From NCBI GenBank assembly GCA_032718865.1, contig JALUTQ010000026.1, positions 558,001 to 622,000 of the forward strand: a stretch of DNA of 64,000 bases, read 5' to 3'. Every line of letters starts with the position of its first letter. Within the stretch, counting starts at the first letter, position 1. Source of the stretch: Tilletia caries. Lineage: Eukaryota > Basidiomycota > Exobasidiomycetes > Tilletiales > Tilletiaceae. Made by a program: the position numbers and the translations under genes. The notes below the pieces were generated by a model. It was not told the origin of the DNA and ran no database searches. It saw only the letters and a list, made by a program, of their open reading frames with translations. This document shows positions 2,647-57,814 of the stretch, one piece after another.

Positions 2647-3247
2647 GTACTACTCAAGGCTCGGACAGTTACTTACAGTTGTCCATTTTGGGTATACAGT
2701 ACAGTACAGTTACAGTTATAACTTACCGCCAGCGCCTACAGTACAGTTACAGCTACAATTAAGTGACTTTAAGTTACTACAGTTACTGTATTTTTTTCGT
2801 CGCGCACGGACCTCCAATCCCAGTTTAAGTCACTGTAACAGTTACTAACAGTTACTGTAGAAAAAGTCTCAAGGTAACTGCAACTTAAAAAGTATTTTAA
2901 GTCACAGTTTTGCCTTTCAACTGTAAGTACCTGACTTTCTACTGTAAGTAACTGTACGTGGCTGTCAGTGGCTGTAAGTGCTTTCTCAAACTGAAAGTGG
3001 CTGCCAGTAGTTTTTTTCAACTTAAACAGTGCTGTATAGTCATAGTAAGTTTGAACAGTTTGGGGCCCAAAAAAATTCCAACTTAATCAACTATTAAGTT
3101 GACTGTGCCCGGGCCCTAAAGTTACAGTCAACTTATTTTTTTTCCGGCTCCGCCGCCTACAGTACAGTTACAGTTATGACTTATTAAGTCAACTTACCTA
3201 CAGTTACAGTGGGCACAGTTATACAGTCGCCGGGCCTTGGTACTACT
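2647..3247. mobile_element. hAT-like non-autonomous element, CAGTTACAGT word
   Basis: The element proper is 2655-3239. It begins CAAGGCTCGG and ends CCGGGCCTTG, an imperfect terminal inverted repeat. It is flanked by a perfect 8-bp direct repeat GTACTACT (2647-2654 and 3240-3247), the target duplication length of hAT transposons. The interior is mainly variants of CAGTTACAGT / AACTTAAGTT and has no open frame of note. Nothing encodes a transposase, so it must have moved in trans. A relative with the same left end and different flanks lies at 36.7 kb. Confidence 0.85.
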
Positions 3248-3597
3248 GCAGTAGTACTTGTCAAAGAAAACATAATTCAAGTATATGCAGTGTATTACTG
3301 CAGTATGTTCACATCATACTTTCCAGATCGATGTGTCCGAAAACATACTGCAGGATAGTTCCAGTATACTGCAGTAGCTCGAGCCAGTATCCTTCAAGTG
3401 CTGCAGCATACAAAAAGGAGGTTTACGCATCGCGCTCCTTTTACATACTGCAGTATGCCGCCAGAGAATCCAAACAGGATACATTACCTTTTTTGGAACT
3501 GCTCAAATTTTCCGACAGGATACAGTATGTTTTGCAAAAAGTAGTACCGCAACAGTATACTGTGACAGGATACAGTATGTAGTATGTCGAAACACTG
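3248..3597. repeat. CTGCAGTA-word element, copy 1
   Basis: This is a block of TACTGCAGTA / GTATACTG words. Its right half is the reverse complement of the DNA flanking the hAT-like element at 27.9-28.8 kb, including the same lysine-like poly-A tract and the TCCTGTCGGAAAATTTGAGC stretch. Positions 3546-3553 (ACCGCAAC, reverse complement GTTGCGGT) are the empty-site equivalent of the target duplication GTTGCAGT found there. Confidence 0.7.
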
Positions 3598-3847
3598 CTA
3601 GGTAGTGAAGATAGTTGCAAGAGTTTTACAAAGTGATGTGAAATGAGGAGTGTCTAATAATATTATGAAGTGTTGATTGCAACTGGGTAGTAAACTATTA
3701 GTTACTTTACTGACTGAATAGTTACCCACTAGCGACCATCTTAACTTGGCAGCACTACTAGTGATAGCAAGTGACTTCAAGTTCAACATGAAGACGAACT
3801 CACTATCTCCAGACTTTCTTCACTTTCCCAGCCCCGCCAAAGTGAAA
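3598..3847 (+). repeat. 250-bp dispersed repeat, copy 1
   Basis: This stretch is nearly identical to 57451-57700; about six mismatches are visible by eye over 250 bases with no gaps. The second copy lies inside the element at 57242-57814, so this one is probably a truncated piece of that element family. It abuts sequence that leads into the 18S rRNA fragment. Confidence 0.85.
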
Positions 3848-4256
3848 CCTAAAGCGGTAATAAACACTAGAGAATCCGCACTGCTTCGCCGCCGCAAGGT
3901 AGCAGGTAGCTGTAGTTCTCACTGAGGATGGCGAGTTTGGTAGGAATTGGATAACGCTGCTAGCGACCCGACCCGACCAGGTGAGCTTAATTCAGATCAT
4001 GTTGAAAACCGGGGGATAAGGAACTTTGACATTACTTAGCCCACGCCAGTACTGATGCTAATCCCGTCGTGGACGTGAGGGTGGAGAAATGGAAGAGTAA
4101 TCAGAATACGAAAATAGCAGCTCGTGTACCTTAGTACATATGTGCTTGCCAGTTTAGTGAAAACACCGGGAGTCCGACCTTAACCTGCATGCAGACATAA
4201 GGGAAGGCTCTTCGGCCGTTGGAGCGATGCTTGCATCCATGGCCATATAGAATAGT
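3848..4256 (+). other. possible rDNA spacer / 5' external transcribed spacer
   Basis: This is non-coding DNA immediately upstream of the 18S rRNA start. Position alone suggests it is the end of the intergenic spacer plus the 5' ETS of the same rDNA fragment. I see no internal feature that proves it. Confidence 0.4.
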
Positions 4257-4496
4257 TATCTGGTTGATTCTGCCAGTAGTCATATTCTTGTCTCAAAGAT
4301 TAAGCCATGCATGTCTAAGTATAAGCAACTTTATACTGTGAAACTGCGAATGGCTCATTAAATCAGTTATAGTTTATTTGATGGTACTTTGCTACATGGA
4401 TAACTGTGGTAAATCTAGAGCTAATACATGCTTACAAGCCTCGACTTCTTGGAAGGGGTGGATTTATCAGATAAAAACCATCCCTTCGGGTCCCTT
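4257..4496 (+). rRNA. 18S rRNA, 5' fragment (about 240 nt), decayed
   Basis: The sequence follows the universal start of eukaryotic small-subunit rRNA: TGGTTGAT.CTGCCAGTAG, then AAGATTAAGCCATGCATG and GAGCTAATACATGC. It stops at about position 240 of the molecule, where the CAAGGCTCGGC element begins. Several normally invariant bases differ (CCTGCC is TCTGCC, CATATGC is CATATTC, GGTAATTC is GGTAAATC). The rest of the rRNA is not found on the other side of the element. It is therefore a dispersed rDNA fragment, not a working gene. Confidence 0.93.
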
Positions 4497-5109
4497 CAAG
4501 GCTCGGCAACTATCTTCACTATGTAACTATGATAACTATATAGTTATAACTAATAGTGATAACTTGACTATACTTTGGGCGGCGAAGCCGCCTAGAAAAA
4601 ATAGTAGCTATAACTTTTTCAGATCGGCGCGGAGTAACTATTAGTTGAAATAGTTATGGAAAATCGCACTTGGCTGATAGAGCCACTAGATAGTCACTAT
4701 GTAGTAGCTCCAGCTACTCCTAGTCACATATAGTCGCTATCTCAGCTACTCATAGCCACATATAATGACTATTTCACCCAAATGTAACTTTTTGTGTTGG
4801 ACAGGGACTGGCTGAGTCAGCTGCTGGATAGCTACTATATAGTAGTTCCAGTCCTTATAGCCACATATAGTGACTATGTCGATCTCACTTTGTGCTGAAA
4901 CAGTCACAGGTAGCTACTGGAAGGGACTATAGTGGCTATTTCAGCGAAAAGCCAACGAAAATTTTGCATGGCTGAAATAGTAACTATTAGTTTTTATAGT
5001 AGCTATATCTCACTTGACTATACTATTTCCCGCCGAGGTGACCACTCACTATAACTTGACTAAGCTATTTCGCAGAAAAGTGGCAACTCTAGTAGCTTGC
5101 CGAGCCTTG
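4497..5109 (+). mobile_element. hAT-like non-autonomous element, TAGTGACTAT word, full copy
   Basis: It starts CAAGGCTCGGCAA and ends TTGCCGAGCCTTG, a near-perfect terminal inverted repeat. The interior is tiled with TAGTAACTAT / TAGTGACTAT / ATAGTCACTAT variants around a short GGCGGCGAAGCCGCC hairpin. The closest relative is 27924-28633. The left flank is 18S rRNA (GGTCCCTT before the end). The right flank GTGGAAGG does not match, so the target duplication has been lost or the right side rearranged. Confidence 0.85.
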
Positions 5110-5617
5110 GTGGAAGGTTAGCAAGGATTCGGAGAAAAAGGTAAAGGCTCTGTCGTACTCACTAATGAAATTCCCATCACCTCCGACATCACCGACCCAA
5201 GGTTGATTGTCGGCACCTGGTATGCGCTTCCGATGAACGCAGCCCGACGATTTTGTGCCTTGATCAGGGATGTTGTCGCGGAGTTGCAGTCCTCGAGGAG
5301 GTAGAGAGCGAAGCTCGACCTCTCGAAGGACTTGGCTGCGTTCGAAAGAATTTGTCAGTACGGTAGTCGGTAATGGATCAGTTAGTATTCGAAACAGAAA
5401 CTCACCAGCTGAGCTCTGTATCGCGGCGTTCACGAGACAGAAGACGAAGTTGAGGAGCAACGCAAAAGTTGCGAGCGCGGCGATCAGTGAGAGGTTGGTC
5501 CGCGTCCAGGTGACTGCGCCAAAGCGGACCGCGTCGGCCACGTACACCCTCCCGTGAGCGAACGCGATCGTGGCAGAGGACGCCGGGGCGATGGTGTGGA
5601 CGGGTTCTATGTGGCAA
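5110..5617 (-). pseudogene. captured gene fragment: membrane protein exons
   Basis: On the minus strand an exon (5617 to 5406) encodes a hydrophobic segment, LSLIAALATFALLLNFVF, typical of one membrane span. A 70-nt intron with GTGAGT...CAG follows (5405-5336). The next exon reads SFERSSFALYLLEDCNSA and continues towards 5111. Splicing keeps one frame, so these are real host-type exons, but neither start nor natural end is present. The fragment lies between a full hAT-like element (4497-5109) and an inverted partial copy (5618-5976), as in gene-capturing (Pack-type) elements. The protein family is not recognised. Confidence 0.6.
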
Positions 5618-5976
5618 TAAGTGACTGGAACTACTATATAGTAGCTATCCAGCAGCTGTCTCTGCCAGCCCCTGTCCAACAAAAAAAGTTACATTTGGGT
5701 GAAATAGTCATTAATGTGGCTATGAGTATGAGATAGCGACTATATGTGACTAGGAGTAGCTGGAGCTACTACATAGTGACTATCTAGTGGCTCTATCAGC
5801 CAAGTGCGATTTTCCATAACTATTTCAACTAATAGTTACTCCGCGCCGATCTGAAAAAGTTATAGCTACTAATTTTTCTAGGCGGCTTCGCCGCCCAAAG
5901 TATAGTCAAGTTATCACTATTAGTTATAACTATATAGTTATTATAGTTACATAGTGAAGATAATTGCCGAGCCTTG
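5618..5976 (-). mobile_element. hAT-like element, inverted partial copy
   Basis: This is the reverse complement of 4497 to about 4855, roughly 360 bases with scattered differences. It ends in TTGCCGAGCCTTG at 5976. Together with the full copy it gives an inverted-repeat frame around the captured exons. The inner end stops abruptly at the exon fragment, as expected of capture or of a second, truncated insertion. Confidence 0.8.
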
Positions 5977-5989
5977 GCACCACTACACG

Positions 5990-9290: not shown

Positions 9291-9299
9291 GAAGTGTGG

Positions 9300-15778: not shown

Positions 15779-16548
15779 TAAGGTTGTCCCCGGGGTTGAC
15801 GCGGAGCTGAGGCTTGGCGGACTCCGCCGGAGGCGGAGCGCGGAGCTCACTTTGGAGAAATTTTCAATCTGAAAAAAGCACGGAGTCCGCCTGGAGGACT
15901 CCGCCGGAATTTACGCGGAGCACGGAGCCCAATCCTGGGCCCACTGGCCAAAAGTGCGGAGCACGGAGTCGTTAAAATGATGTGACAATTCCGGCGGAAT
16001 TTTCGCGGAATTCCGACGGAGCTGTGAGGTCACGTGATGATCGAAAATAGAGGTCACGTGACCTCATTTTGGGTGCGCTCCGCCGGAATTCCGCAAAAAA
16101 AAATCCGCGGAAATGTGCGAAATTCCGAGAAAATAGGCATCGTAGAGACACGCTCAGGGGATAAGACAGGCATCAGCATCCGTTGAGAGCTTCAAAATAG
16201 CACTGGAGTCAATAACGCAACAACGTCGGACGGTGAATTTATAGCTCTGATTGTAATTTGTATTAGAGTCATTCTGAGAGCAACTTATACCACCACTGCG
16301 CTCCGACGGAATTCCGAGTTCCGCTCACACGGAGCACGGAGGAGCATTATGAAAACGCACAGAAAAAACGCGGAGCGCGGAGCTGGGATTTCGACTCTTG
16401 TATAATTCCGTCGGAACGCGGACCTGTTTTTTTTTTTTTCGGTCTGTCTTAGTCTGCGGAGGCGGAGCTCGCCTCAAAAAGTCAAAATTCCGGCGGAATC
16501 TGGAAGTGCGGAGGCGGAGCCCTCCGCGTTACTCCGGGGACAACCTTA
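15779..16548. mobile_element. MITE, TAAGGTTGTCCCC family, full copy
   Basis: It starts TAAGGTTGTCCCCGG and ends CCGGGGACAACCTTA, an inverted terminal repeat. It is about 770 bp and filled with CGGAGC / GCGGAGCACGGAG / CCGGCGGAAT motifs. The centre holds two CACGTG sites 24 bp apart (16031 and 16055), the second inside the perfect 16-bp palindrome GAGGTCACGTGACCTC. Flanking octamers ATCGGAGT and CTTAGAAC do not match, so any target duplication is lost. Sister copies are at 40140 and 56197. Confidence 0.8.
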
Positions 16549-17058
16549 CTTAGAACCGTGGACCACATACCACAACCGCATGAAGACCCTCCTTCCTTGT
16601 CCTCCTTTTTGACCTCCTTCGTGACATCCAATTTCACCTCAGGGTTAATTGACAACATGTGCGCTTCAAAACGAAGTTTCGGTATAGTCGCTTTGTACGC
16701 CGCACTGCGCACAGGTGCTTGTGGTATCCGACGGCGCCTGGTAGACTTCGCGCTGGAAGGCTACGCGCAGCGGGAGAAGCTGTGAAGATGGGCCAGAGAT
16801 GGGCAGTGGGCTCGCTCGGTTGTGTGCTCATACTGTATGCCTGCTTCGTTTTCAGTGTTGTTTGCGCGCTCGAGATCCACATCGATCGGGTAGTGTGGTG
16901 TACCTGGGCCCCCTGGGGTGCTGTGGCACTCGGTCAAGAAGTGATTCTGCTTAGATGTGGCACATCAATTGTAAGAAAGAAAAAGGTCGTCAAAGTGCAT
17001 AGTCCACTTTGCAGCCAAATGTACAAACGTCCATCGGGTTAGTCCGCTTGCCCATAAA
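16549..17058 (+). other. weak open frames, no recognised gene
   Basis: A plus frame just right of the MITE (RTVDHIPQPHEDPPSLSSF onward) ends at TGA about 16785. A second from ATG 16787 starts with a hydrophobic, signal-like stretch (GCVLILYACFVFSVVCALE). Neither has a known relative. Confidence 0.25.
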
Positions 17059-18690: not shown

Positions 18691-20185
18691 CTAGTCGGAG
18701 AGCAGACTCGCTGCCGTGAGCGCAGAATCATGAGGAATTATCTCTTTTGCCTTTGCGGCAGCACTGAGGGGAAGCTCAGGCTCGATGCTGGTTGACTTCA
18801 GCATTCCAATAATATCCTCCTCTGTAGCGGGAGCACCAGTCTCATCCTCCTCTGGAGCGTCGAGCAAAAACTCAATGCTCATCGAGTTGTAAATTCTCAG
18901 CCGAGAAATAGAGTCCCTGAGCTCCCTTTCCGCCTCTTGATCTATGACCTCGCCGGTAGGAGAAAGTTCCAGTCGCACGGGCGCATGCGGCTCGACCACC
19001 TCCTCCACCTCCTCCTCCTCGTTATCACTAAAAATAACATTTCCAGATGACTCATTAATCTCGAAGTAGTCGCCTTCATCGTTTGGAAGAACTCGGGCAG
19101 GTAGCACCGGAGACTTTGGCTCCTGACGAACTCCGAGAATATCGGTGTGCAACCAGCAGTTCTGAATTGTCATCTCTGAAACGCGCTCCCATGCGTCCCT
19201 AAGCAATGAGATTTCCCTGCGAATGCCAATTTTTCCTGGATTGGAAACACCATCCTCCAATTCCTCAAGCAAAAAGTCATTATAAAATGCCCTGTAATGT
19301 GCTTTGAGAGCGCGGATGGTGCCTGCATTCATAGGCTGTAGCTTAGAGGTCGTGTTTGACGGTAGAAAATTAATTTCTGTTGCCTTAAGGTCCCCTCCAG
19401 CTCTGCTTTGTGCCCGGAAAAAATTTCCATGAGCAGCAGCACCTTTCGCCTCTCGGCTTCCATCTGGTCAGCGAACCCGACCAGCCACTCCAGGAAAATA
19501 TGACCAGTCATCCAGGTCTTTGAATTTGACCTGTAAATGACGCCCAGGGTGTCCCTATCGACATTGCGCATGTCTCTAGGGTTCTCCCATTTCCATATGA
19601 ACCACAATGGCAGTTTGGAATTTTGGATGTTCCTGTGACATTGGAACAGGCAGGTGAGGCAGCGCCGGTAGCGCGAGCCTTCTTCTTTTTGGTGCCTGAA
19701 AATTGCTGTGTTGCCAGGCCTTTTTCCGCTGCCACATCGATGATCAATCCAAACTCGTCCATGTTGAAAATATCATCCCTGCTGTACTCTGTAGTCTTTT
19801 CCTTCAATGCAGGCAGTTCCGCCTCAATGAGTTCCAGATCAAGAGAGCCAGCTTCGCCATGGCGGCGGTGAGATTTGATTCTATAAGCAACCTTGAAAAT
19901 TGAGAGCCATCCATCGCTCCAGCCATCTGCAGTGTGCTTCGCAGCGTCCTCCTTAGGATGAAGAAGTTGATGAAATTCAGCCGTTTTGGCTTTCAAGTGA
20001 CTGCCCGAAGCTCGACACGCTCCTAGACAGACAAACCCATTCATAAAGGTGTTTTTCTACCAGTGCATGCTTCCGTTCCCTGACCCAGTATCGGGATGAG
20101 AGCGTCTCTAGCTGAGTTGCTAAAGGAAGGAGCTTTGCCCGGTTGTTTGTACTGAGGATTTTAGACACCACAGACTGTCTGTAAC
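18691..20185 (-). pseudogene. pogo/Tigger-like DDE transposase relic 1
   Basis: Three overlapping minus-strand frames together follow a fungal pogo-type transposase: N-terminal HTH remains (SYRQSVVSKIL, near 20180), then IFNMDEFGL with the first catalytic Asp near 19759, and LATQQFSGTKKKK. The frame shifts, giving YRSNSKTWMTGHIFLEWL and RKVLLLMEIFSGH, where the usual second Asp (DNFSGH) has become Glu-Ile. A further shift leads to MNAGTIRALKAHYRAFY and IQNCWLHTDILG, then an acidic tail to 18691. At least two frameshifts and a changed catalytic residue mean it is dead. Its N terminus is cut by the MITE at 20186. Confidence 0.85.
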
Positions 20186-27880: not shown

Positions 27881-28757
27881 GACATACTACATACTGTATC
27901 TTGTCACAGTATACTGTTGCAGTCAAGGCTCGGCAACTATCTTCACTATGTAACTATGATAACTATATAGTTATAACTAATAGTGATGATTAATAACGTT
28001 GTACAAAAATTATGGCAGGCGGTGCTTATTTATCTGAGGATCTCCTCAGATCTCGTGGATCCTACGAGGGTTGTAGGATGATCGCACGATATCTTCGAGG
28101 ATGATTCTCACGTGTCGTGCTGAGGACTATCCCCAGTTCTTCATGGACGATTGGCAGGGTAGAAAAAAAAGTAGCTATAACTTTTTCAGATCGGCGCGGA
28201 GTAACTGATAGTTGAAATAGTTATGAGAAATCGCACTTGGCTGATATAGCCACTAGATATTCACTATGTAGTAGCTCCAGCTACTCCTAGTCACATATAG
28301 TCGCTATCTCGGTTACTCATAGCCACATATAGTGACTATTTCACCCAAATGCAACTTTTTGTGTTGGACAGGGGCTGGCTGAGACAGCTGCTGGATAGTT
28401 ACTCTATAGTAGTTCCAGAGCCCCAGGTAGCTACTGGAAGTGCCTACAGTGGCTATTTGAGCGCATTGCGAAAAGTCAACGAAAAATTTGCATGGCTAAA
28501 ATAGTAACTATTAGTTTTTATAGTAGCTATATCTCACTTGACTATGCTATTTCCCGCCGAGGTGACCACTCACTATAACTTGACTATACCATTTCGCAGA
28601 AAAGTGCTAACTCTAGTAGCTTGCCGAGCCTTGGTTGCAGTACTACTTTTTGCTAAAACATACTGTATCCTGTCGGAAAATTTGAGCGGTTGCAAAAAAG
28701 GTAATTATCCTGTTTGGATTTTCTGGCGGCATACTGCAGTATACTGCAGGATCCTGT
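27881..28757. repeat. CTGCAGTA-word element, copy 2, split by an insertion
   Basis: The outer parts (27881-27923 and 28642-28757) are together the reverse complement of 3390-3590. The uninterrupted copy shows where the hAT-like element entered. Words are again TACTGCAGTA and GTATACTG. Confidence 0.75.
27916..28641 (+). mobile_element. hAT-like element, TAGTGACTAT word, perfect 8-bp TSD
   Basis: The element 27924-28633 begins CAAGGCTCGGCAACTATC and ends TTGCCGAGCCTTG. It is flanked by GTTGCAGT at 27916-27923 and 28634-28641. The interior matches 4497-5109 except that about 27990-28160 is replaced by unrelated DNA rich in GGATCCT / AGGATGAT. The related empty site at 3546-3553 confirms the duplicated octamer. 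Confidence 0.92.
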
Positions 28758-36533: not shown

Positions 36534-37451
36534 CAGGGCTCGGCTCCGACTATAGTCACACTTTTTTTTTGGCATAGTCATAGTCGTAGTCAGTTGTGCA
36601 ACATACTATCGATAGTATCCTATGATAGTATACTATATAGTATATACTATTTACGCAATATACTATATATGCCGCGAATTGTCAGCATTTTTTCGATGGT
36701 AATACTATATACCAAGGCTCGGCCAGTTATTATAAGTTGTCCATTTTTGGTCCGCAGTTAAGTTTAGTTTAAGTTGGAACCCGGCGCCGGCGCCGTATTT
36801 TAGTTTAGTCACAGTTTGGCCACTTACTATCATTACAGCTAACTTAATTTTGCGCCTGTCACTATACGTTACTTACAGTTATTTATGGTAACTTGATCTC
36901 GTCTCAGTCACCCAGTTCACGCGGTATCTACCTCAAGATGTCTTGTACTATTCCAGTTTGCCTTTGGGCACGTATTTCGCCGCCTCCGAGCTCGCTCGTA
37001 CATGTTTCCTCTCTTGACTATCTCGAAAGACTCATGCTTTTTAGTTATTGATAGTTACTTGTTACAGTTATTATTAGTTACTGTGGACACAGTTGTTGAT
37101 AGTTACTTGTTACAGTTATTGTTAGTTACTGGATACAGTTATTAATATTGACTACTATAGTTGTGATTAGTTACTGCGCGCACTGTGAGTAGCTTTAAGG
37201 AACTGTAAGTAACTATAAGTAGCTATAAGTTTGCACTGTAAGTAGCTGTGAGTAACTGTAGTTGGGTCAAATCTTCGTCTTGCGAACGGCAACTTCTAGT
37301 GACTATAGGCTACCGTGTCCGGGCCCATGCAGTTTAAGTTGACTTGATTTTTCCGGAGGCTCCGCCGCCCGCAGTTTAGTCACAGTTTAATTAGATTAAG
37401 TTAACTTACCCGCAGTTGTAGTTAGGTAAGTTGGTGAGTTGCCGAGCCTTG
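36534..37451. mobile_element. nested hAT-like element fragments
   Basis: A left end CAGGGCTCGGCTCCGACTAT at 36534, as in the 41580 element, runs only about 60 bp. A TATACTATA-word block follows to 36712. At 36713 CAAGGCTCGGCCAGTTATTA starts an element of the CAGTTAC-word type, ending TTGCCGAGCCTTG at 37451. Flanking octamers of the inner (CTATATAC, CCTCCAGG) and outer ends do not match, so this is a nest of truncated or recombined copies rather than one insertion. Confidence 0.7.
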
Positions 37452-40139: not shown

Positions 40140-40927
40140 TAAGATTGTCTCGGAGTTGACGCGGAGCTGGGGCTTGGCGGACTCCGCACTCCTCCGACGG
40201 AGGGCTCCGCCGGAGGCGGAGCGCGGAGCTCACTTTCGAGAAATTTTCGATCTTAAAAAAGCACGGGGTCCGCCTGGAGGACTCCGCCGGAATTTACGCG
40301 GAGCGCGGAGCCCAATCCTGGGCCCACTGGCCAAAAGTGCGGAGCGCGGAGTCGTCGAAATGATGTGACAATTCCGGCGGAATTTCCGCGGGATTCCGAC
40401 GGAGCTGTGAGGTCACGTGATAGTCGAAAATGAGGGTCACGTGACCTCATTTTGGGTGCGCTCCGCCGGAATTTCGCCAACGTTCCGCGGAAATGTGCGG
40501 GATTCCGAGAAAATAAGCATCGTCGAGACACGCGCAGGGGATAAAACAGGCATCATCATCCGTTGAGAACTTCAAATTAGCACTGGAGTCAATACCGCAA
40601 CAATGCTGGACGGTGAAAGCGAAGCTCTGATTGTATTAGAGTCATTCTGAGAGCAACTTATACCACCACTGCGCTTCGACGGAATTCCGCGGAATTCCGA
40701 GCTCTGCATAAACGGAGCACGGAGGAGCATAATGAAAACGCAGAGAAAAAACGCGGAGCGCGGAGCTGGGATTTCAAATTTTGTAAATTTCCGTCGGAAC
40801 GCGGAGCTGGTTTTTTTCAGCTCTGTCTCAGTCTGCGGAGGCGGAGCTTGCCTCAAAAAGTCAAACTTCCGGCGGAATTTGGAAGGGCGGAGGCGGAGCC
40901 CTTCACGTTACTCCGGGGACAACCTTA
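40140..40927 (+). mobile_element. MITE, TAAGGTTGTCCCC family, full copy
   Basis: It runs from TAAGATTGTCTCGGAG to CCGGGGACAACCTTA, about 788 bp and colinear with 15779-16548. The paired CACGTG sites are kept at 40414 and 40438, again 24 bp apart. No matching flanking octamers; it appears to have replaced the right part of the preceding MITE. Confidence 0.8.
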
Positions 40928-41286
40928 GTTTGTCTTGCTCAACAGCGGCGGACATGTTCTTGCGCGAGTTGCTGTAGACGATCGTGGACACGGTGGGATG
41001 CGTGTGTTGAGAAAGGTGCTGGTGTGTTGCTTGTGGGTTGGTGAATGCCTTTCTGGCGGAGTTCGCGATATGAGCTGCTTGTTGAGTCGAGGTTCTCGAG
41101 GCGCTGTGCGCCTACTTAACCAAATATAACCTGCGCAGCTGTACACCTTGAAAGCACGCCCTGGGTGGCTCCAACACGGTTACCTCGCGCACTGAATAAT
41201 TCTTCACCTCCCAGGTATGTGTTATTGCAACTTGCCAGCATGCGGTTGAGATGATTATACGAGCTCGAGGGACATGAACCGCATGG
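40928..41286. other. no gene recognised
   Basis: Non-coding stretch between the MITE nest and the split gene; no repeat match seen. Confidence 0.35.
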
Positions 41287-42720
41287 TTGTGTACTGTATT
41301 TGAATGCTATAATACGGATGTTGCTGATGTCAATGAACGCCGCCATGAGTGCTCATTGCATGGAAAATGGGTAATGATATCGTCCAACGCAACTCCTTCC
41401 CGTCTCCGGCAGGCATTGGGGTCATTTCGCCCAAATGCCACTGCTGTTCTCCAAGGGGAAGGAGTCGACCCCATCAATGACCTTACTGCTTCAGGCAAGA
41501 AAGTGCTCGCATGTATTGCCTCTGGTCAGCTACCAACTGTAGACGATCTGGACACATTATCAGTCTTCACGAACTACGGCAGGGCTCGGCTCCGACTATA
41601 GTCGCACGTTTTTTGGCATAGTCATAGTCGTAGTCGTAGGCGTTTTTTGAAAATCCGAAATAGTCATAGTCGTAAGTCTGACTATAGTGGCATAGTCGAC
41701 TATAGTCGCAGGCTTTTGGCGCAGCCAAATTTTTGCACTATAGTGTGACTATAGCCAAAATTGTAACACCTGTGCGCCACTATAGTCGGACTTTGGGACA
41801 ATAATTTTCGCACTATAGTTGCACGTCAAATTTCAGACTATAAATAATTATAGTGTAGGTCGCTTTTAATTGTCTAAGATCGGATATAGTCAGGCTATGG
41901 TTTGACTATCCAACAATAATGGTCGCACTATGACTGGCTATAGTGTTTCATGGGCAATAGATGTCATAGTCTGACTATAGCGGTGGCGGTCGGGCCTGCG
42001 GCTATAGTCGCAACTCCAGCTATAGTCAGACCATGACATGCTATAGTCGGACTATAGCCGAATTGTTTGCTGCGACTATAGCCTTGACGTCCAGCTATTG
42101 TCCGACTATAGTCGCAAAATCAATTTTAGACCAGATTTTTAACGACTATGGCGACTATTGTCTTACATTTTCTGGAGCATAGTCATAGTCATAGTCGTAT
42201 GAGGCTATAGTCGTAATAGTCGTAAAATCCCACAGTCTTGCCGAGCACTGGACTACGGTGAGGGCGTATACGTATTTTTCTGCGTCGACAAAGATGAGAT
42301 CGTCAAGGCCATCTACGTCGAAGAAAGCTCGGACGTTCCGGGGGAACAGGAACTCACCTTCTTTGCATATGGCTCGCCATGTCGGCCACGACTCAAGAGC
42401 TCCAATATCTCGTGAAATATCAACCCCAGCTGCTACGCTTTGACATCGTGAATATGGGCCTCAAGGTCGTGACTCGTGCCGACTCGCGTAGCAAATGGTA
42501 GAATTCGTATGGTGACGGCTGGGACCGAGATGATCATGATCAAAGTAAAGACGCCCTATACGCCGGTCACCACAGCTTGGTCAAGAAAGCAGCACATCAC
42601 CGTGATCGGATAGCAAAGGAAGTGGTTACCAAGCTGGGACCAGCTGACAAGCTGATGGTTCCTTTCCTATCCGCCGCCGCAGAAGTTAAGGAGGATAGTT
42701 GGGCAGGCTTTCTGCTGTAG
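41287..42720 (+). pseudogene. unknown gene split by a hAT-like element
   Basis: An open frame (41287-41579) ends ...DDLDTLSVFTNYG at the element. After the element (ending 42250) the sequence GACTACGGTGAG resumes. Removing the element and one copy of the octamer restores an open frame: TNYG then EGVYVFFCVDKDEIVKAIYV and ESSDVPGEQELTFFAYG. A later frame carries ATTQELQYLVKYQPQLLRFD to TRADSRSKW, an in-frame TAG, then NSYGDGWDRDDHDQSKDALY to a stop at 42720. So beside the insertion there is a frameshift and a nonsense codon. The protein family is not recognised. Confidence 0.6.
41572..42258 (+). mobile_element. hAT-like element, GACTATAGTC word, inserted in coding DNA
   Basis: The element 41580-42250 begins CAGGGCTCGGCTCC and ends TTGCCGAGCACTG. 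Flanking octamers AACTACGG (41572-41579) and GACTACGG (42251-42258) agree at seven of eight places, an aged 8-bp target duplication. The interior is almost entirely GACTATAGTC / CATAGTCATAGTCG variants, without coding capacity. Confidence 0.88.
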
Positions 42721-44037: not shown

Positions 44038-47000
44038 TCAAGGCGACCATGTCGAGAGGCGCTTGAAGATAACTTCTCGGGCAGAAACAAAGGCAGGGAC
44101 CGTGCTGGACGAGGGAGAAGGAGTGATGGCTGAGGATGTAGATGATGGAGTCGCAGCGTTGGCTCTACCCTTAGAGCCAGCCGTTTTGGCCAAGCAGTCA
44201 GAGAGTCCCCGTGTCGTATAGCCCCCAAAGCAGGCCTCCATGAATCTTATCGCGTGCTCTTGCGTCCAGCTCGGTCGTGATCGGGTGATGTCCTCCAGGA
44301 GATCGATCACCTTCTTTCGTCGGCTCCACTCCTGCTTCATTCCCGGTCCGGACCGCCAACCCGTTCCCCACGTCTCTTCCATCATCCTGGTTCCGAATCG
44401 CCCATTTGCCCCCACACTGTATTCCGCCCACGTGTCACGTACAGACGGGCCTGGCCGGAACTGGTATCTTGGCAAAATGATGTTCTTCTCTGCGACATAT
44501 GCCCAGGGCTCGTTGGCGGCTACCTTCTCCTTTCTCCATCGGGCTTCTTCCTTCACCATCAGCTCCGAAATCTGCTGCTGTGTCTGGGCGCTTCCTGCAG
44601 TAGCAGAGGTCAAAGCTGTGGTTTCAGGGAGATGCGCGATGAAGGCAGGGGCAAGGGCGGTCTGTTGTGATGCTGGTGCCATGATCCTGTTGAGGTAGGC
44701 GAGGGCACGATCGGAGGAGCCGGAGATGTCGAAGGATGGTGGCGCGGCCGAGGGCGCCCTTGGCGACGGCACGGTAGCGAGGGGAAGAGAAAGGAGAGAA
44801 GGCGTGTTGGCGGGAAGGGACGTGCTGTTGGGTGGAGAGAGGAGAGAAAGGGACGGGGATGATGGTGTGGCAGCTTGAATTTGGAGGGGAAGCAGCGCCG
44901 GTGTCCCTACGAGAGCAGATGCTCGAAGGGGAGTGGGGTTTTGAGGATCGGCTGTAATGGAGAAGGAAGAAGCGGAGGCAATAGAAGGAAGAGTATCGAT
45001 GAAGTGTGCGGCTGGAGTGGTAGAGGTGTTGAGTGTCGGTATGGTGTTTGCCTGACGCAATATGAGCTCGATACAGAGGTCAAGCTTCTTGTGCATTTCT
45101 TCGTCGCGCCGCTCAGCATCGGACTTGAAATCCACAAGCGCATTCTTCACGCCCGCTCCTAGCTGCTTGGGCAGCTGGGCGAGCTGCCGCTCCGACTCCG
45201 AATCGGCCGTCTTCATGCTCTTCGCGAGCTCGGCGGCAAACTGGTGGAACTCGGCGCTCGCAAACGTCGCGCATGTCGGAAAGAACTGGAACTCGGACCA
45301 GTATGCACGCAGACTGAGCACAGCAGCATCTGGGAGGATGACCTCGCGGAACCACTCGAGGCACGAAAGGAAAGCAGAGAGAGCAAAGTCGCTCGCGTGT
45401 TGGTTTGCCGCCTGCCGCTCCTTGAGCTTCTCTCGCTCTTCCTCTACCCAAGGAAAGAGCTGGCGAAGCAGGCTCTGAGGGGGCTCTAGGGACGCACAAC
45501 AGAATGAAAGGACCATGAGTGTGGTCAGTTCGTGAGAGATGAAGCAAGGGGACAGAGTAGCGGAAGAGAGGACGTAGAGAAGGCTTCGAATGTGACAGAC
45601 AGCAGACTCACTGGTATGGGATCGTGGGACGTGGTAAGAATCCAAGTCTTGACCGTTGAAGCCGGCAACCGCCCAAATGGCGTCGAGAGGGAAAGAACGA
45701 TCGTAACAAGAGCGGAAAGCACCACCGTCCGACCAGCCCCCTAACGCCTTTGCTCCAGCTACGCTTGCACCATTCTCTCGTGCAGTCATGGCGCTTGCAG
45801 CTCGTCCAGCGTGTGTTGTCTTTCCCACTGAGACATCGTTGGCTTTGAACATCTTGTTGACTGCGCTGTCGTGTGCTAGTGGGAGATGGAATAGGTACAA
45901 TTTCAACATCAGTATTGACCCAAATACACAGTGCAAGGCTCAAATGCATCCCAGCTAGCGTTGTTCGCCATGCGCATAGCTCTGACCGCAACTCCAATCT
46001 CCATCTCTCCACTTCTCCTCCACCGCGCCGCTCCACATCGCCGAGCCGAGCGCCGCATTGGCGCACTGCCCGCACTGATGGTAGAACCCATCTCCACCTC
46101 GCTCGCTGCGCGTCGTACTCATGGAGGAGAGGAAAGCTTGGCAACGCATTGCAACTCCGCAGACCATAGACGTGGGCCAGACCAGAGGGCAGGACAGGGG
46201 AAGGGGGAAGGGGGAAGGGGGAAGAGCACCAGAGACAACTCACTTTTGTATACCATCTCTTGTATCGGAGCTGAGTGCCGGCCACGAAAGATCACCCATT
46301 CCCACCACTCTCTGTGACCGTACTTGCCGTGCTTATTGCTCTTGAAGTTGGGCTCGAATGATGGTCGGGAAACGTTCCCAAGCTGCATGGACCATAGCGC
46401 CTGCATGGCGATGGCGGCGACTGCGCAACGGAGAGGGTCGCTGTGCCGAGCGACGGCAAACTCGTCCAAGCGACCGTTTTGGTTCGTTTTGTTGTTGTCT
46501 GCACGAAACGCGAGCAGCTGGAAGTTTGGTTCAATGAGAAAATGGACATATGGTGGTGTCAGTAAAGCTGCGTTCCGTTGTCTGCATCTACAAGTACCCA
46601 GATGTCCAGATCCAGAATGTGCACCAGCATGCAGCATACAATCGAGGAGCCATGTACATTGTGCACGCACCTTGACAGTGTCGTCCCCACCACGACCAGG
46701 GACCGTAGCGTTGTGCAAGAACAAATCCGACCACTCCAATTGACGCAATGAGTCTCCTCGAAAGGCACTCGCGACAGATGCGAGCAGCATAGCTCTGTCC
46801 CTGATCAAGGTTCCAATCTTCGCTGGCGTCCTCCCCATCTTCAGCGCCCATATGCTCATCTTGACGAGCTCTTCTTTCTTCAAGGTAGCTGCAAAGTGGC
46901 GGACCATCAGAGAAACAAAATCCATGTGTAGACGCTGTCAGATGTTGGCCCGCTTCTGAGACTTGAGAGCATCATGCGGGTCTTGTTGAGAGAATGAGCT

Positions 47001-50764: not shown

Positions 50765-52694
50765 ATGACCGAGGCCGTCAGTCCGCTCAAGCCGGGTCTC
50801 CTGACCAAGCTGGATAAGGACCGTCGCCTGCTCGAGCTGGCCGGATACTCCTTCTTTTACGACCTTCCCGACGGCCCCTACCTCAATCACCTCGACGAAC
50901 TGGGGCTTACCCCTTACCGCAAGGACCGAGAACATAACTTCAAGCTTGCCCTGGAGTCTGTGAAGAAGACCGCACTCTCCACTCAAGACAGCGCACTTAA
51001 GACGATCACATATGGGAAGAACGAGTAAGTTATCATGCTCCGACCTCTTATTCCACTCCGCGCCGATACTGACCCTCGCTGTTCTGTACTCTAGCCGCAA
51101 GCTTTCACGCAGGAGGGCGAGCAGCTCTGGTCTGTCTTCCAACAGGATGCGCAGCTGACGACATGGCGACAGCTTATCGACGGTAGTCATCCGTCGCTCA
51201 CGGAGTCCCAGCCTTCCCAGCAGGCCCGCGTCTCTGTCGCTTCCACCTCCAAGGCAGAAGATACCTCCGTCGTTTTGGGCAAGCGCACGCGTCGACCCAA
51301 CTCTCGATATTCCGACTCCGAAGGCGACCAGCCCGGGCCTCAGAAACGGCAGACGCGCACCGCGAGCAACAAAGACTCTGGAAAGGGTCTAATCCTCCCG
51401 ATGAAGCATGCCGACTTTTCGCTACCCTTCGCCGGAACGGAATACGACCACAACGAAGACGACTCCGAATTCGACGACTTCAAGCCCGACGACACGCAAG
51501 ACCCCGAGTTCAGCGATGAGGAGGGACTCACGGCCAGTCCGGCGAAGCGCACCCGGCGAAGCGCACCCGGCGAAGCGCATCCGGCGGCGTCCGACAGTTG
51601 GCGGGGAGGGTACCGCGAAGAAGGCGTCGCGAAAGATTTCCGCCCAGGAACAGAAGGAGTTCGCTAATGCGCGTCGCGGTCGCGCAGGCTCTTCTTCACT
51701 CGACGAGGAAGAACCCTCTCAACGCTCACGTCACAAGCCTGCCGCCCCCAAGGACACACCGTACGATCTGGAGCAGGAGTCGCAGCAGACGTCTGCGTCG
51801 ATGCGGCTCGTCAAAGAGGAGACGGAGCACCCTAACATAAAGAACGGCACTCGCTACTACCGGCTCCTCAAGAGCTTCTCGCAGATCCGCCACCAACAGA
51901 AGACCGGAGCGGAATACACCGTCATCACGGAGAAGTGGAAGTGTTGCTTCTGTGACGGGGAGTACACCGGCCATCCCGACGACCGGTCGAGCCTCTCTCT
52001 TCACCTCAATCCCAAGCACAGCAAGTCCGCGTGCAAGTACCTTTACTTCCCTAAGGACAAGGCATTGGAGGGCACCAGCCGGATCCTGCGGTTCAGGCAC
52101 CTGAGCCCTCTCGAAGGGGCGCGGCGTCCATTGGCGGCGGGCAGGGCAGTCTCAATTCATGGGTGGTCGACCAGAGGCAACGCAATCACGAGGTTCAGCT
52201 CTCCGTCATCCGTCACAAGGCCTTGCTCTGGGTGGTCATGGACGCCCTCCCCTTTACGGCCCCGTCCCGTCCATGGTTCCGAGACCTGATGCTGGCAGCA
52301 TCATCAGTCGCCGGCCAAGGGTTGATGTCGGCCCGCTCCGTTGTCGCCGATCTTGAGCAGCTCTCCGACCGACTCCTTCTGCAGGCTGTCGACCGTATCA
52401 AGACATACGCAGCTCCCTTCGCCATCCGTCAAGATGCGTGGAGCTCTCCGTCACAGCGACACACCTTTGTCGCCTTCGTGGTCGCTTGTCTTGATCCTTC
52501 TTGGAAGCACCGACAATTCGTTCTCAACTTCCTGGTCCTTAAGGGTCGTCACGGAGGCGCAACGTTCGCTGGCCATCTCGTCACGGCGCTCAAGACTCAC
52601 GGCATCCTTCAGCACTGGACAGGCATCATCGTCGTCGATGCGGCGTCCTCCAATGGCCGAATGTCTTCAATCCTGGAGCAAGAGATGGCGGAGG
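50765..52694 (+). pseudogene. hAT transposase, 5' part
   Basis: ATG 50765 opens MTEAVSPLKPGLLTKLDKDR; a GTAAGT donor at 51025 and TAG acceptor at 51094 suggest an intron, though the phases do not join cleanly. A BED zinc finger is at about 51940-52020 (KWKCCFCDGEYTG then LSLHLNPKHSK). The catalytic core begins WVVMDALPFTAPSRPWFRDL, with FAIRQDAWSSPSQRHTFVAF (first Asp region) and GIIVVDAASSNGRMSSILEQ (second Asp region, VDxASSNG). Lesions: a 14-bp unit GCGAAGCGCACCCG present three times at 51542-51583 shifts the frame, a further shift near 52120, and the MITE at 52695 within codon EMAE. hAT transposases cut DNA at elements with 8-bp duplications; this copy may come from the lineage that mobilised the surrounding MITEs. 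Confidence 0.88.
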
Positions 52695-53391
52695 TAAGGA
52701 TCTTCCCGGAGTAGGCCCCGGAGTAACATTCCCCGGAGCTCCGCGGACTCCGGGGGACGCTCTGCACGGGTACGGAGCACGGAGCGAGATTTGAGCGTTT
52801 TTTAATAGCTTTAGATTTGCGGAGCTACTCCGCGAAGATATGGCTGCCACGCCCCGGAGCGCGGAGTGAGTTTGCTTGCATTGTCAAAAAAGCCCCGGAG
52901 TACGGAGCAGACCCCGGAGTCCGACGGAGCTCCGGGGATGGCAAAGTGGGTGACGTGATGGCCAGAACTGAGTCACGTGACCGGTTTTTGAGGGATTTCT
53001 CGGCCGAATCAGGTCGAAATAATGTGTATTTCAGCTTTTTTGGGGCAGTAAACCCTTGGAAAAGAATGATATAGGCTTCTAAAGCTGCGATTGAACTGCT
53101 TCGATGAGATTTGACCTTCTCCTGAGCCCATGTTGGACCCATTTCATGACACCCCGGAGTACCCCGGAGTCCGCGGAGCTATTTTGCGGAGCACGGAGTC
53201 CGCCTGTAAGAAATATACGGAGCACGGAGTAGATTCTTGCGCGCAACCGCAACTTCGACGGAGCACGGAGTGCTCGCCAGCTGATCACCAAAATGTTTGC
53301 GGAGCGCGGAGCTGGCCGGATCTCAGACGGAGCTGAGCGGAGCACCGCCCCGGAGTCCGGGCTCCGGGGATCTACTCCGGGAAGATCCTTA
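52695..53391 (+). mobile_element. MITE, TAAGGATCTTCC family, copy in hAT gene (forward)
   Basis: TAAGGATCTTCCCGGAGTAG to GGGAAGATCCTTA, 697 bp. Left flank GGCGGAGG (52687-52694). Right flank CAGCCTAC (53392-53399) is the reverse complement of the octamer that flanks the other copy at its far side (GTAGGCTG, 54445-54452). The interior has CGGAGCACGGAGT motifs and a central CACGTG (52974-52979). Its own two target-duplication partners are therefore on different elements, which shows an inversion. Confidence 0.93.
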
Positions 53392-54620: not shown

Positions 54621-55194
54621 TGATCGAAGACGATCCCGCACAGAGGGCGAGAGAGAGAGCTCAAGATGGTGTAGGTCGAAGAAGCGCTGAAGAAAGGCGG
54701 TGGTCAGGTACGCAAGCAACGAATCACCTTGCTCAGATGGTCAGAAGTATAGGAGTGGGTCATGGTCAGTGATTCAGTGTTGGCAGTGACATTGCCGCGT
54801 TGGCTGATGACCATGGAGATTGGAGATTCTCACAGACAACAGAGAATCAACAGGCGACGTTGTTGACAGCTGAATGGAAAGATTAGGGGGGTGGGGGAGT
54901 GGGTTATGAACTGCTGCGGGCACTTACGGACCGGCCTCAACCGACATGAAGGAAGGTGATGAAATGAAATGAGGCGGCGGCGACGATATGAGGCACTACA
55001 GCTTTAAGCTATGGGGGATTGGAAATTGAACAGCCCACAACAGCGAGTTTCCCGACGCGATTATGAGTTGTTGAGGAAAATTATCGGAGTCTGAAAACTA
55101 AGAACATCACGCTGCGCAGTCAGCTGCATGAACCATTGATATTTGACGCACCAATACCAGCTCCGCTGCGCTTCACCTACAGTAAACGTGTGAT
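54621..55194. other. no gene recognised
   Basis: Non-coding purine-rich stretch. I found neither a hAT C-terminal exon nor a terminal repeat here. Confidence 0.35.
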
Positions 55195-55891
55195 ATGATG
55201 ACTGTCATTATGAACAACGAGCTGCTATTCTCATCTGCGTCTTCCCTGACCGATGATAGCTATCAACTCCGCAGTGTTAACCGTTTTAGCGCGTCTGAGT
55301 CTCACTCAGGCGTACACAGCAAGAACGGTGACCCCAGCCTCTTCTTCCTTTTTTCTGCATCCACTCACCACGCAGCGCAGCGACTCCGCGGTCTCGGCGT
55401 CCAAGCCGGACCAGTGCGCGCCGCTGCTGCTTTCGCCGCCGAGCCCTCGCATGACTCTTCTCTCACCGCCATTGCGGCCCGACCTCAAACTCCGGAAGCC
55501 ACAAATATCAAGTTCCACAAGGTAAGCGTGAGTATCGATTAGGTTCGATTGCGCCTTCTCCGACTTCTGAGGTTCCGATGCGGTTCTGCTGTCTCTTTTC
55601 AGATCTATCACCTTCCGTAGAGCAAGGTGGGAGCGCGAGTCGCTGGGCCCAGCTTTCACGAAGTGTTGGCCCAGTGAAGGTGTGAGATTGTGGCTCCAGA
55701 TATCACAAGGCTGTCGACCAGCGAAGACGTATGGGAATGCCTATACGCCTCGCTTCGCCCGTATCAGGATTATTTTACTCAATTTGAATTCCGGTGAGAT
55801 GAGAATGATTCCTTTTTCGTCCCCATATCCTTGTGCTCGCTGGCTACTGCGGTTCTGCGGATCATTGATGAGCTAATGATTGAACTAGTGA
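55195..55891. other. weak open frames
   Basis: Two plus frames and one minus frame (55195-55659) are open across the same Ser/Ala-rich region. None is recognised, and splice-like GTAAGC at 55520 is the only gene-like sign. Confidence 0.2.
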
Positions 55892-56196
55892 TTGCTCAAA
55901 ATATATTGTGCAGTGAATGGGAGCGGAACGGAGCACCGCCCGTCTTACTTCTCTTTGAATGAGCAAGGCATTGATGTGACACGCGCTGGAGCCTCTTCTG
56001 ACGCACTTTACCCTGATGGAAAAGCTTTGCAGTCTGTTTACACAGGGAAGCATGCACATATAGTCTCCATTCGGCAAGACCCTCCCCATTCCATCTTCCC
56101 GCCGCTGCCGGCAGGAGCGCCCACACTGCAGGCGGCATTCAACACTGTCAAAGTTTTTCAGGTCGGCCACGGCCAAACCTCAGGACGTGCCATTGC
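55892..56196 (+). pseudogene. unknown coding sequence cut by a MITE
   Basis: The frame LKIYCAVNGSGTEHRPSYFS ... GKALQSVYTGKHAHIVSIRQ ... HGQTSGRAIAK is open up to the MITE end at 56197. Coding-like composition, no ATG required at the left (could be an internal exon). Not recognised. Confidence 0.4.
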
Positions 56197-56658
56197 TAAG
56201 GTTGTCCCCGGAGCAACGTAAAGGGCTCCGCCTCCGCCCTTCCAAATTCCGCCGGAATTTTGACTTTTTGAGGCGAGCTCCGCCTCCGCAGACTGAGACA
56301 GAGCTGAACAAAACCAGCTCCGCGTTCCGACGGAATTTTACAAAATTTGAAATCCCAGCTCCGCGCTCCGCGTTATTTCTGCGCATTGTCATAATGCTCC
56401 TCCGTGCTCCGTGTATGCGGAGCTCGGAATTCCGTCGGAGCGCAGTGGTGGTATAAGTTGCTCTGAATGACTCTAATACAATCAGAGCTATAAATTTACC
56501 GTCCGACATTGTTGCGGTATTGACTCCAGTGCTATTTTGAAGCTCTCAACGGATGATGATGCCTGCTTTACCCCCTGAGCGTGTCTCGACGATGCCTATT
56601 TTTTCCGGAATTCCGCACATTTCCGCGGAACTTTGGCGGAATTCCGGCGGAGCGCACT
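56197..56658 (-). mobile_element. MITE, TAAGGTTGTCCCC family, truncated, reverse
   Basis: Begins TAAGGTTGTCCCCGGAGCAAC and follows the reverse complement of the right two-thirds of the 40140 copy; it breaks off after GGAATTCCGGCGGAGCGCAC, before the CACGTG centre. Coding sequence lies on both sides. Confidence 0.8.
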
Positions 56659-56670
56659 CAATGACATGTT

Positions 56671-56935
56671 GCCTTCTTGGGACACTCGTTCCGAATCGGT
56701 GAGCTACCGTCCATTGGCATACCGACGCCGCGATCGCGGATATCAAGCTTCTTGGTGGTTGGACGAGCAACTCGGTCAGTCGATACCTTCGTGATTACGG
56801 TCGCGGCCTCCTCGCCGTGCATCAACGAACTGCTGCATCCATTGCAAACGCCTCCACGGCTCAACTCGTTCCCTTCGCTCCCGCTCCGCTTCCCGCTCCA
56901 GTTCTTCCCGCGATTCAACCCGCTCCCCGTCCCTG
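56671..56935 (+). pseudogene. tyrosine recombinase, C-terminal catalytic fragment
   Basis: GHSFRIG (His-x-x-Arg of tyrosine recombinases) is followed, after a one-base shift, by ATVHWHTDAAIADIKLLGGW and TSNSVSRYLRDYGRG, where the Trp-x-S...Tyr matches the GRW.S..YxRYI end with the nucleophilic Tyr in SRYLR. The stop is at about 56935. This is the recombinase of a DIRS-like element or related integrase. It may be the partner class of the RT at 26-1521, though wording alone cannot join them. The N-terminal part is replaced by the MITE. Confidence 0.75.
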
Positions 56936-57241
56936 ATATCTCGTCCCGGCTCGCACTCGCTCACGCTCTCGTTCTGTCATAATGATTCTCACGCTGTCCA
57001 AGTGATTCACGACTCGTTCTCGATTGCCTCGTTGCATGTGTACTAAGCTCCGGAGGCATCCCCCCGCGTCTTCGCCACTGGGTGCTTCGGCTGATCACCT
57101 CAGGCCCTCCTGTCCTGCGCTGCCCCCCGCGTCGCTGCGCTCCTTCCTTCGGGATGTTTATGGGCGGCGGGCCAGCTCTGACTATTGGGTCTCGCTCGTT
57201 ACTGTGGCTGGTCAGACCCCCGAATTTGCGTCTTACACATG

Positions 57242-57814
57242 CAGAGCTCGGCAAGTGAAGATAGTGAGCAAATTTTCGGACAAAGTATAGTGAAAGTGAA
57301 AGTGAAGGTCTCAGCCGGCCGACAAAGTATAGTTTAGTTATGAAAAGTTGAGATAGTGACTACTAGTTTGAGCACTTTTTGCGACCGTTGCGGCCACATA
57401 GAAGACCGCGGTAGTCCCTGGTTTTGTCTCATCAGAGCTCTACCAAGTCACTAGGTAGTGAAGATAGTTGCAAGAGTTTTACAAAGTGATGTGAAATGAG
57501 GAGTGTCTAATAATATCATAAAGTGTTGATATCAACTGGGTAGTAAACTATTAGTTCCTTTACTGACTGAATAGTTACCCACTAGCGACCATCTTAACTT
57601 GGCAGCACTACTAGTGATAGCAAGTGACTTCAAGTTCAACATGAAGACAAACTCACTATCTCCAGACTTTCTTCACTTTCCCAGCCCCGCCAAAGTGAAA
57701 GTTCACTATCTTTTTCTTCGACGGCTCGGAGGCCAAAATATAGTGAAAGTTTCATTACTAGTTCTCACTTCCAAGTTACAAAGTATACGAAGTGAAGGAA
57801 GTTGCCGAGGCTTG
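57242..57814. mobile_element. hAT-like element, AGTGAAGATAGT word
   Basis: Ends are CAGAGCTCGGCAAG and TTGCCGAGGCTTG, a variant of the CAAGGCTCGGC terminus. The interior uses AGTGAAAGTGAAGG, AAGATAGTG and CTATTAGTT words and contains the 250-bp repeat. Flanks TACACATG and ATGTGTGC are not a direct repeat. Confidence 0.75.
57451..57700 (+). repeat. 250-bp dispersed repeat, copy 2
   Basis: Almost identical to 3598-3847. Here it is embedded in the element 57242-57814, which identifies the source family of the other copy. Confidence 0.85.

What the first reader, a model, noticed from the sequence alone, without database searches (positions are those of the whole stretch)
2647..57814. A hAT-like element group with a constant 11-bp terminus and a different palindromic word in each interior
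Copies at 2655, 4497, 27924, 36713, 41580 and 57242 share only the ends CA(A/G)GGCTCGGC...GCCGAGCC(T)TG. Three of them have 8-bp target duplications (two perfect, one 7/8). Yet their interiors are unrelated strings of one short self-complementary word each: CAGTTACAGT, TAGTGACTAT, GACTATAGTC, AGTGAAGATAGT. Normal MITE families diverge from a common interior; here the terminus is conserved and the interior seems rewritten into iterated palindromes. The words may be subterminal binding sites that co-evolve with transposase variants, or products of a templated, slippage-like fill-in process. I know of no described family with this design.
Basis: partly seen in the sequence, partly recalled or inferred. 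Interest (0 to 1): 0.93.

Follow-up and report, generated by a model that had tools for sequence, protein, structure and literature searches.

The report
Bunt-fungus hAT transposons with rewritable words
Short jumping DNA pieces in a bunt fungus keep one fixed end sequence and one fixed layout of repeated short sites, but each family has changed the letters of its sites together, and larger elements with the same ends carry a cell-cycle-type protein kinase gene beside the transposase gene.

Summary
The six window copies fall into five families of short non-coding hAT-type transposons in a Tilletia (bunt fungus) genome of 38.1 Mb. CARGGCTCGGC occurs 596 times, its reversed control 54 times. Of 97 fetched end pairs, 66 have perfect 8-bp duplications; chance gives 0.04%. 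Three families with aligned copies are about 94-96% identical inside, so copies are not rewritten one by one.

Two larger elements with matching ends and perfect duplications (L039, 8.4 kb; C27, 11.1 kb) enclose a hAT transposase and a CDK-like kinase gene placed tail to tail. This arrangement recurs at 24 of 44 kinase-like loci.

The words share an ACT/AGT core, 2.2-3.1 times enriched. Homologous ends of four families keep core positions and orientation, while the two flanking letters are family-specific. Best reading: binding sites of the transposase's BED-type zinc finger, changed in concert in each lineage. Binding is inferred, not shown. Ac/Ds and Hermes are the nearest known designs; a kinase gene in hAT elements was not found in print by my searches.

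The parts
2655..3239 (+). family 4 copy (word ACAGTTA), sister of family 2
   Evidence: ends one mismatch each; perfect duplication GTACTACT at 2647-2654 and 3240-3247; 96-98% partial copies in L055, L075, L053
4497..5109 (+). family 1 copy (words ATAGTTA, ATAGTGA, ATAGTCA)
   Evidence: exact ends; 97.4% to L080 over its full length; no duplication; abuts an 18S rRNA fragment
5966..5976 (-). terminus of an inverted partial family 1 copy
   Evidence: exact GCCGAGCCTTG preceded by inverted family 1 sequence, read by eye
27924..28633 (+). family 1 copy with an internal stretch of other DNA
   Evidence: exact ends; perfect duplication GTTGCAGT at 27916-27923 and 28634-28641; 76-77% of its length aligns to family 1
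36534..36712 (+). left-end remnant of family 0 followed by other sequence
   Evidence: first 58 bp 93% identical to the family 0 left end
36713..37451 (+). family 2 copy (words AGTAACT, CAGTTA, TAAGTT)
   Evidence: exact ends; full-length match to family 2 members such as L044 and L057; no duplication
41580..42250 (+). family 0 copy (word GACTATAGTC)
   Evidence: 7 of 8 duplication AACTACGG/GACTACGG; full-length match to family 0
57242..57814 (+). family 3 copy (word AGTGA)
   Evidence: right end matches 40 scored places in the genome; copies with perfect duplications in L112 and across L094/L095; no duplication at this copy
3598..3847 (+). fragment of family 3 interior
   Evidence: 97.6% over 250 bp to 57242-57814
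51846..52726 (+). decayed hAT transposase remnant with a BED-like finger, same group as L039
   Evidence: genome places C21:609846-610076 and C21:610127-610726, 42-47% identity, two stops inside the second; finger read

Best explanation
The copies are non-autonomous members (MITEs) of a radiating group of hAT DNA transposons. Each MITE family is essentially the two subterminal arrays of a larger two-gene element: a BED-finger hAT transposase and, tail to tail with it, a CDK-like protein kinase. Shown: ends, 8-bp duplications, family structure, matching larger elements for families 0 and 1 at both ends and for family 2 at one end, the recurring gene pair, and word arrays confined to about 400 bp at each end of L039. 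Inferred: the repeated word is a half-site with an ACT/AGT core, bound by the BED finger, often as inverted pairs; the layout of half-sites is old, and the letters flanking the core changed at many sites together when a lineage's transposase changed its preference, which keeps one lineage's transposase from using another lineage's ends although all share the 11-bp terminus. Speculative: the kinase phosphorylates the transposase or a host factor and ties transposition to a cell-cycle state.
For: Duplications 66 of 97 perfect, 72 of 89 with at most two mismatches for same-family end types and 0 of 4 for pairs mixing two families. L039: 8395 bp, duplication GCCACGAC, ends 94% over 162 and 85% over 222 bp to family 1, kinase ORFs and transposase ORFs inside. 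C27:527761-538849: 11,089 bp, duplication AGCAGAGG, ends 81-98% and 94% to family 0, transposase 534703-535656 and kinase 528478-530439 inside. C33:746230 left end 98.7% over 154 bp to family 2, transposase and kinase following. Kinase-like loci: 26 of 44 within 10 kb of a transposase hit, 24 tail to tail, against 4% of random positions. ACT/AGT 2.2-3.1 times enriched in all five families and in the fetched partner ends, 0.87 in window background, 0.8 inside L039; 8-10 cores per 100 bp in the first 400 bp of L039, then 0-2. Four homologous ends share 7-12 of 12-13 core positions with orientation, shifted control at most 3; without alignment, 7 of 45 end pairs share at least 3 cores in the first 56 bp and all 7 join ends of families 1-4 in one consistent pairing. 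Flanks at shared sites are alike within an element beyond permutation, p=5e-5 for four families. The finger spacing C-x2-C-x16-H and the serine five places before the histidine match the Hermes BED residues that contact AAGT sites.
Against: No binding or transposition is shown. zf-BED scores are below Pfam's cut-off in 3 of 3 relatives (12.8-16.6 against 20.6 bits). ACT/AGT is not the most enriched trimer everywhere: GAC and CTA are as high or higher in family 0 and at the C24 end. Two-family permutation tests are weaker (p=0.006 and 0.033). The asparagine that contacts DNA in Hermes is alanine in the C27 finger and serine in the window remnant. Positions 163-393 of the family 1 consensus were not matched in L039, so family 1 is not a plain deletion of that copy. 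Partners of families 3 and 4 were not found. 18 of 44 kinase-like loci have no transposase hit within 10 kb. Other repeats in the window with other ends also hold dense words.
Confidence: 0.78

Rival explanations
1. Ordinary hAT MITE families of different ages: words are relics of ordinary tandem or inverted duplication inside each family and have no binding role.
For: Families are clean and internally conserved; similar dense words occur in repeats with other termini in the window.
Against: Cores lie at the same positions and orientation in different families, are confined to about 400 bp at each end of L039, and are similarly dense in C27 ends.
Confidence: 0.13
2. Templated or slippage-like fill-in writes a new iterated palindrome into each element, as the first reader also proposed.
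For: Inverted pairs of the core are common: for example ACT-N2-AGT 9 times in family 0 and AGT-N1-ACT 10 times in family 2.
Against: Copies of a family agree to about 94-96%; layout shared between families; tandem-repeat scores inside elements are low.
Confidence: 0.04
3. The kinase is passive cargo: a host CDK-like gene captured once and carried along without a role in transposition.
For: Capture of host or other genes by fungal hAT and other DNA transposons is known (TET/JBP genes, PMC12730594, passages).
Against: The pair recurs, in the same tail-to-tail order, with transposases only 29-51% identical to L039's, and divergent kinase copies keep long open frames (for example 607, 694 and 819 aa); lysine, HxDxKxxN and DFG motifs are kept in P0010.
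Confidence: 0.35

Closest known systems
Maize Ac/Ds family (hAT)
   Same: 8-bp duplications, 11-bp terminus shared by elements of differing interior, repeated hexamer AAACGG near the ends bound by the transposase, short members with common filler (PMC3260210, passages).
   Different: In Ac/Ds one hexamer is shared and one autonomous element drives the family; here each family has its own word and, for families 0, 1 and 2, its own transposase lineage. No kinase gene is mentioned in the passages seen.
Hermes (hAT) transpososome
   Same: BED finger binds short subterminal repeats with AAGT as minimal site, cooperatively on a palindromic pair; same C-x2-C-x16-H spacing and serine position (PMC10368747, passages; our finger).
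   Different: Far denser arrays here (55-73 cores in a 573-742 bp element) and lineage-specific flanks; last zinc ligand spacing differs; binding not tested.
hAT7 with TET/JBP dioxygenase, and IS3EU with alpha-kinase (rust fungi)
   Same: Fungal DNA transposons with an accessory enzyme gene; IS3EU transposase and alpha-kinase genes lie in opposite orientation (PMC12730594, passages).
   Different: Here the superfamily is hAT with 8-bp duplications and the kinase is CDK-like (Pkinase), best PDB match CDK2.

Membership tests
hAT superfamily | 8-bp target duplication | tested here: met
   66 of 97 perfect, null 0.04%; L039 and C27 perfect
hAT superfamily | transposase with hAT C-terminal dimerisation domain inside the ends | tested here: met
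   L039 ORF 21.0 bits, just under the 21.4 cut-off; 98-99% relatives of L039 at C25, C30 and C32 score 51-52 bits, over the cut-off; C27:533419 56.4 bits inside the C27 pair
hAT superfamily | N-terminal BED finger | tested here: inconclusive
   finger pattern conserved but zf-BED below cut-off in 3 of 3 relatives
hAT superfamily | catalytic DDE residues | not tested
   motif strings resembling hAT blocks are present in L039; assignment as catalytic is recalled, no structure was made
MITE | short, non-coding, many near-identical copies with inverted ends and duplications, ends shared with an autonomous-type element | tested here: met
   mobility itself not tested
Ac/Ds-type family driven by one transposase | one subterminal motif shared by all members | tested here: not met
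   words differ between families; only the ACT/AGT core is shared
IS3EU | 6-bp target duplication and alpha-kinase | tested here: not met
   8-bp duplications; kinase is Pkinase, CDK-like

The most novel reading that the evidence does not exclude
A hAT lineage with a built-in specificity switch and a built-in cell-cycle sensor: one old scaffold of BED half-sites is re-lettered in concert each time the finger changes, splitting one transposon stock into mutually deaf families inside one genome, while a co-carried CDK-like kinase gates transposition by phosphorylation.
Probability: 0.3. Interest if true: 0.88.

Novelty: new variant of a known kind. Interest (0 to 1): 0.7.

Why it matters
How a DNA-binding protein with dozens of sites in its own element can change specificity is an open problem: every site has to follow. 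Here one genome holds several stages side by side, with homologous sites that can be compared position by position and with partner transposases present for three families. The CDK-like kinase, paired with transposases of widely differing sequence, suggests a second essential-looking gene in a hAT group and a direct, testable route by which a transposon could read the host cell cycle.

Tried and rejected
Introner reading: some duplications look like splice sites (GGTGAGTG at L029) but this was not tested further; one paper search for introner with hAT terms found nothing.

L106, L109 and L116 as autonomous elements for family 0: L106 holds a DDE_Tnp_4 match and broken family 0 pieces, so I read it as a nested insertion; the 634-aa ORF of L109 had no Pfam match; ORFs of L116 were listed but not searched in families.

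Other hAT families of the genome (L010-L024) were read at their boundaries: they end in other termini rich in CCCG words, not the CARGGCTCGGC terminus.

PDB search with transposase relative P0004 found no match up to E=1. The protein database gave 9 Tilletia transposases, one close kinase (P0010) with five generic kinases of plants and a bat, and no further relative of the kinase N-terminus; the first two searches scored only the candidates sharing most words.

Paper searches for a kinase in hAT elements. PMC6416283 was seen in passages only and gives Pkinase with Helitron remains, not hAT. Structure prediction was not used.
Full report
Setting. A transposase found in it has its closest database relatives in Tilletia: 9 of 9 hits are from Tilletia species, the best from T. 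laevis at 100% over 73% of the query. The species is not settled. A 38.18 Mb assembly of T. caries is named in an abstract that I saw in a listing only (PMC10684912).

The observation. CARGGCTCGGC has 596 exact hits, the reversed control 54. Four narrower searches listed 393 of the 596 places. They gave 101 convergent neighbours under 12 kb. I fetched the 97 of them up to 9 kb. Of these 97, 66 have perfect 8-bp duplications and 75 at most two mismatches; flanks paired between different elements give 0.04% and about 0.9%. Pairs whose two ends belong to the same family type have at most two mismatches in 72 of 89; four pairs that mix families have none. So the ends are true termini and families do not move as mixed composites in this sample.

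Families. Clustering the interiors gives three main families among elements under 1.1 kb: 38, 28 and 14 members including window copies. Aligned members (34, 25, 13) are 93.6, 94.0 and 96.0% identical on average, with consensus lengths of 714, 615 and 742 bp. Window copy 41580 is family 0, 4497 and 27924 are family 1, 36713 is family 2. Copy 57242 is family 3: its right end matches 40 scored places, and two other copies have perfect duplications (L112; L094 with L095). Its terminus is CAGAGCTCGGC or CAGGCCTCGGC, so the constant 11-bp word is not fully constant. Copy 2655 is family 4, related to family 2 over half its length, with partial copies at 96-98% in three loci.

Larger partners. L039 (C3:618558-626952) is 8,395 bp between family 1 ends with perfect duplication GCCACGAC; 162 bp at one end are 94% and 222 bp at the other 85% identical to the family 1 consensus. 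It encodes a hAT transposase and, on the other strand, a protein kinase. C27:527761-538849 is 11,089 bp between family 0 ends with perfect duplication AGCAGAGG; it encloses a transposase 30% identical to that of L039 and a kinase. C33:746230 is a family 2 left end, 98.7% over 154 bp, interrupted by a family 0 insertion, followed by a transposase at 748322, 29% identical to that of L039, and a kinase at 752793; its right end was not found. A fourth type of end, with the same terminus but word GACTAAG/CTTAGTC, lies outside the kinase at C24, C40, C4, C9 and C39 and occurs at 28 places in all; its other end was not found. I did not test whether any copy is intact.

The kinase. Searching the genome with the kinase ORF of L039 gives 60 hits, which merge to 44 loci. 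Of these, 26 lie within 10 kb of a transposase place taken, and 24 of the 26 are tail to tail; 4% of random positions on 27 of the 40 contigs lie that close. The remaining 18 have no listed transposase near and some may be host kinases. The T. controversa protein P0010 (872 aa, 98% to the ORF) matches CDK2 best in the PDB, E=1.2e-39, with the lysine, H-L-D-I-K-P-E-N and DFG motifs kept; the threonine of the CDK2 activation loop is not aligned to a threonine. Its C-terminal part, the 315-aa ORF in the middle of L039, holds a cysteine and histidine pattern that looks like a zinc finger (my reading; no Pfam match).

The words. The top 7-mer exceeds the maximum of 200 shuffles in each of the five families, by far in family 0 and by one count in family 1 and 57242. 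ACT/AGT is 2.2-3.1 times above base composition in five families, the L039 ends, the C27 ends and the C24 end, and 0.87 in window background. CTA and GAC are as enriched or more in family 0 and the C24 end, as expected from GACTA words. In L039 the cores are dense in the outer 400 bp and sparse beyond. Flanks are family-specific: ATAGTC in family 0, ATAGTnA in family 1, AAGTTA/CAGTTA in families 2 and 4, AGTGA in family 3, TTAGTC at the C24 end.

Old layout, new letters. Local alignment of the 140 bp inside the terminus, against shuffles of 10-bp blocks, links one end each of families 1, 2, 3 and 4 (z 8.6-14) except that families 3 and 4 reach only z 2.9 directly; family 0 and C24 are linked only by shared words (z 0.8-1.4). 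In the alignment of these four ends, ACT/AGT cores share column and orientation at 7-12 of 12-13 sites, against at most 3 when shifted. Because an alignment may be drawn to the cores, I repeated it in raw distance from the tip over 56 bp without gaps: of 45 pairs of ends, 7 share three or more cores; all 7 join ends of families 1-4 and both sides of the element give the same pairing; for each, 0 or 1 of 44 slides does as well; the left end of family 3 and both family 0 ends give none. At shared sites the two letters beside the core agree in 9 of 49 comparisons between families but in 93 of 288 within an element. Permuting letters between families at each shared column gives p=5e-5 for four families or for three, 0.006 and 0.033 for two pairs of families. 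Sites share ancestry, so these p-values are guides.

Mechanism. In Hermes the BED finger binds subterminal AAGT sites, cooperatively on a palindromic pair, with S66, N67 and R70 at the bases and zinc ligands C51, C54, H71, C73 (PMC10368747, passages). Fingers of four Tilletia transposases have C-x2-C-x16-H and S and N five and four places before H; the C27 finger has S and A, the remnant in the window S and S. I infer that the ACT/AGT core is read by the kept serine side of the helix and the flanks by residues that differ between lineages. zf-BED scores below its cut-off in three of three proteins tested, and the C33 finger was not hit.

Comparison. Ac/Ds has an 11-bp terminus, 8-bp duplications, bound subterminal hexamers and unlike fillers (PMC3260210, passages); the new points are several words with several transposase lineages, the inherited layout, and the kinase. 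Accessory genes in fungal transposons are known, including TET/JBP in hAT7 and alpha-kinase in IS3EU in opposite orientation to the transposase (PMC12730594, passages). My searches showed no hAT element with a CDK-like kinase; these cover an open-licence library only. A genome paper on bunt fungi reports mostly gypsy and copia elements and had few matches for my hAT terms (PMC9172201, passages).

Scores. The hAT nature and the family structure are near certain, the gene pair well supported, the binding role likely, the concerted change well supported but from four ends, the role of the kinase open.

Noticed in passing
window 15780-16552 and 40150-40930: A repeat with another terminus (TAAGGTTGTCC...GGACAACCTTA) whose interior is also dense in short words (CGGAGC, GGAATTCC); no duplication seen by eye. 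Word-filled interiors are thus not unique to the CARGGCTCGGC group.
   Followed up: partly
window 2200-2654 and 3240-3600: The DNA around the family 4 copy is itself dense in AGTATAC and CAGTATACTG/ACTGCAGT words, apparently another repeat into which it inserted.
   Followed up: partly
window 4313-4496: A fragment of 18S rRNA (Rfam RF01960, 97.5 bits, match drawn to 4634) directly abuts the family 1 copy at 4497, without a duplication.
   Followed up: no
C3:1866233-1872596 (L048-L050): Three nearly equal 1.77-kb family 0 derivatives with about 1 kb of extra interior lie in a row, in both orientations.
   Followed up: no
window 44038-45939 and 18691-19467: ORFs with GCR1_C and NDC10_II matches, and with a DDE_1 match: further mobile-element-type genes.
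   Followed up: no
L039:3756-4703 and protein P0008: A module with a zinc-finger-like pattern is joined to the kinase in the T. controversa protein P0010 but to the transposase in the T. indica protein P0008; gene model error or real fusion.
   Followed up: no
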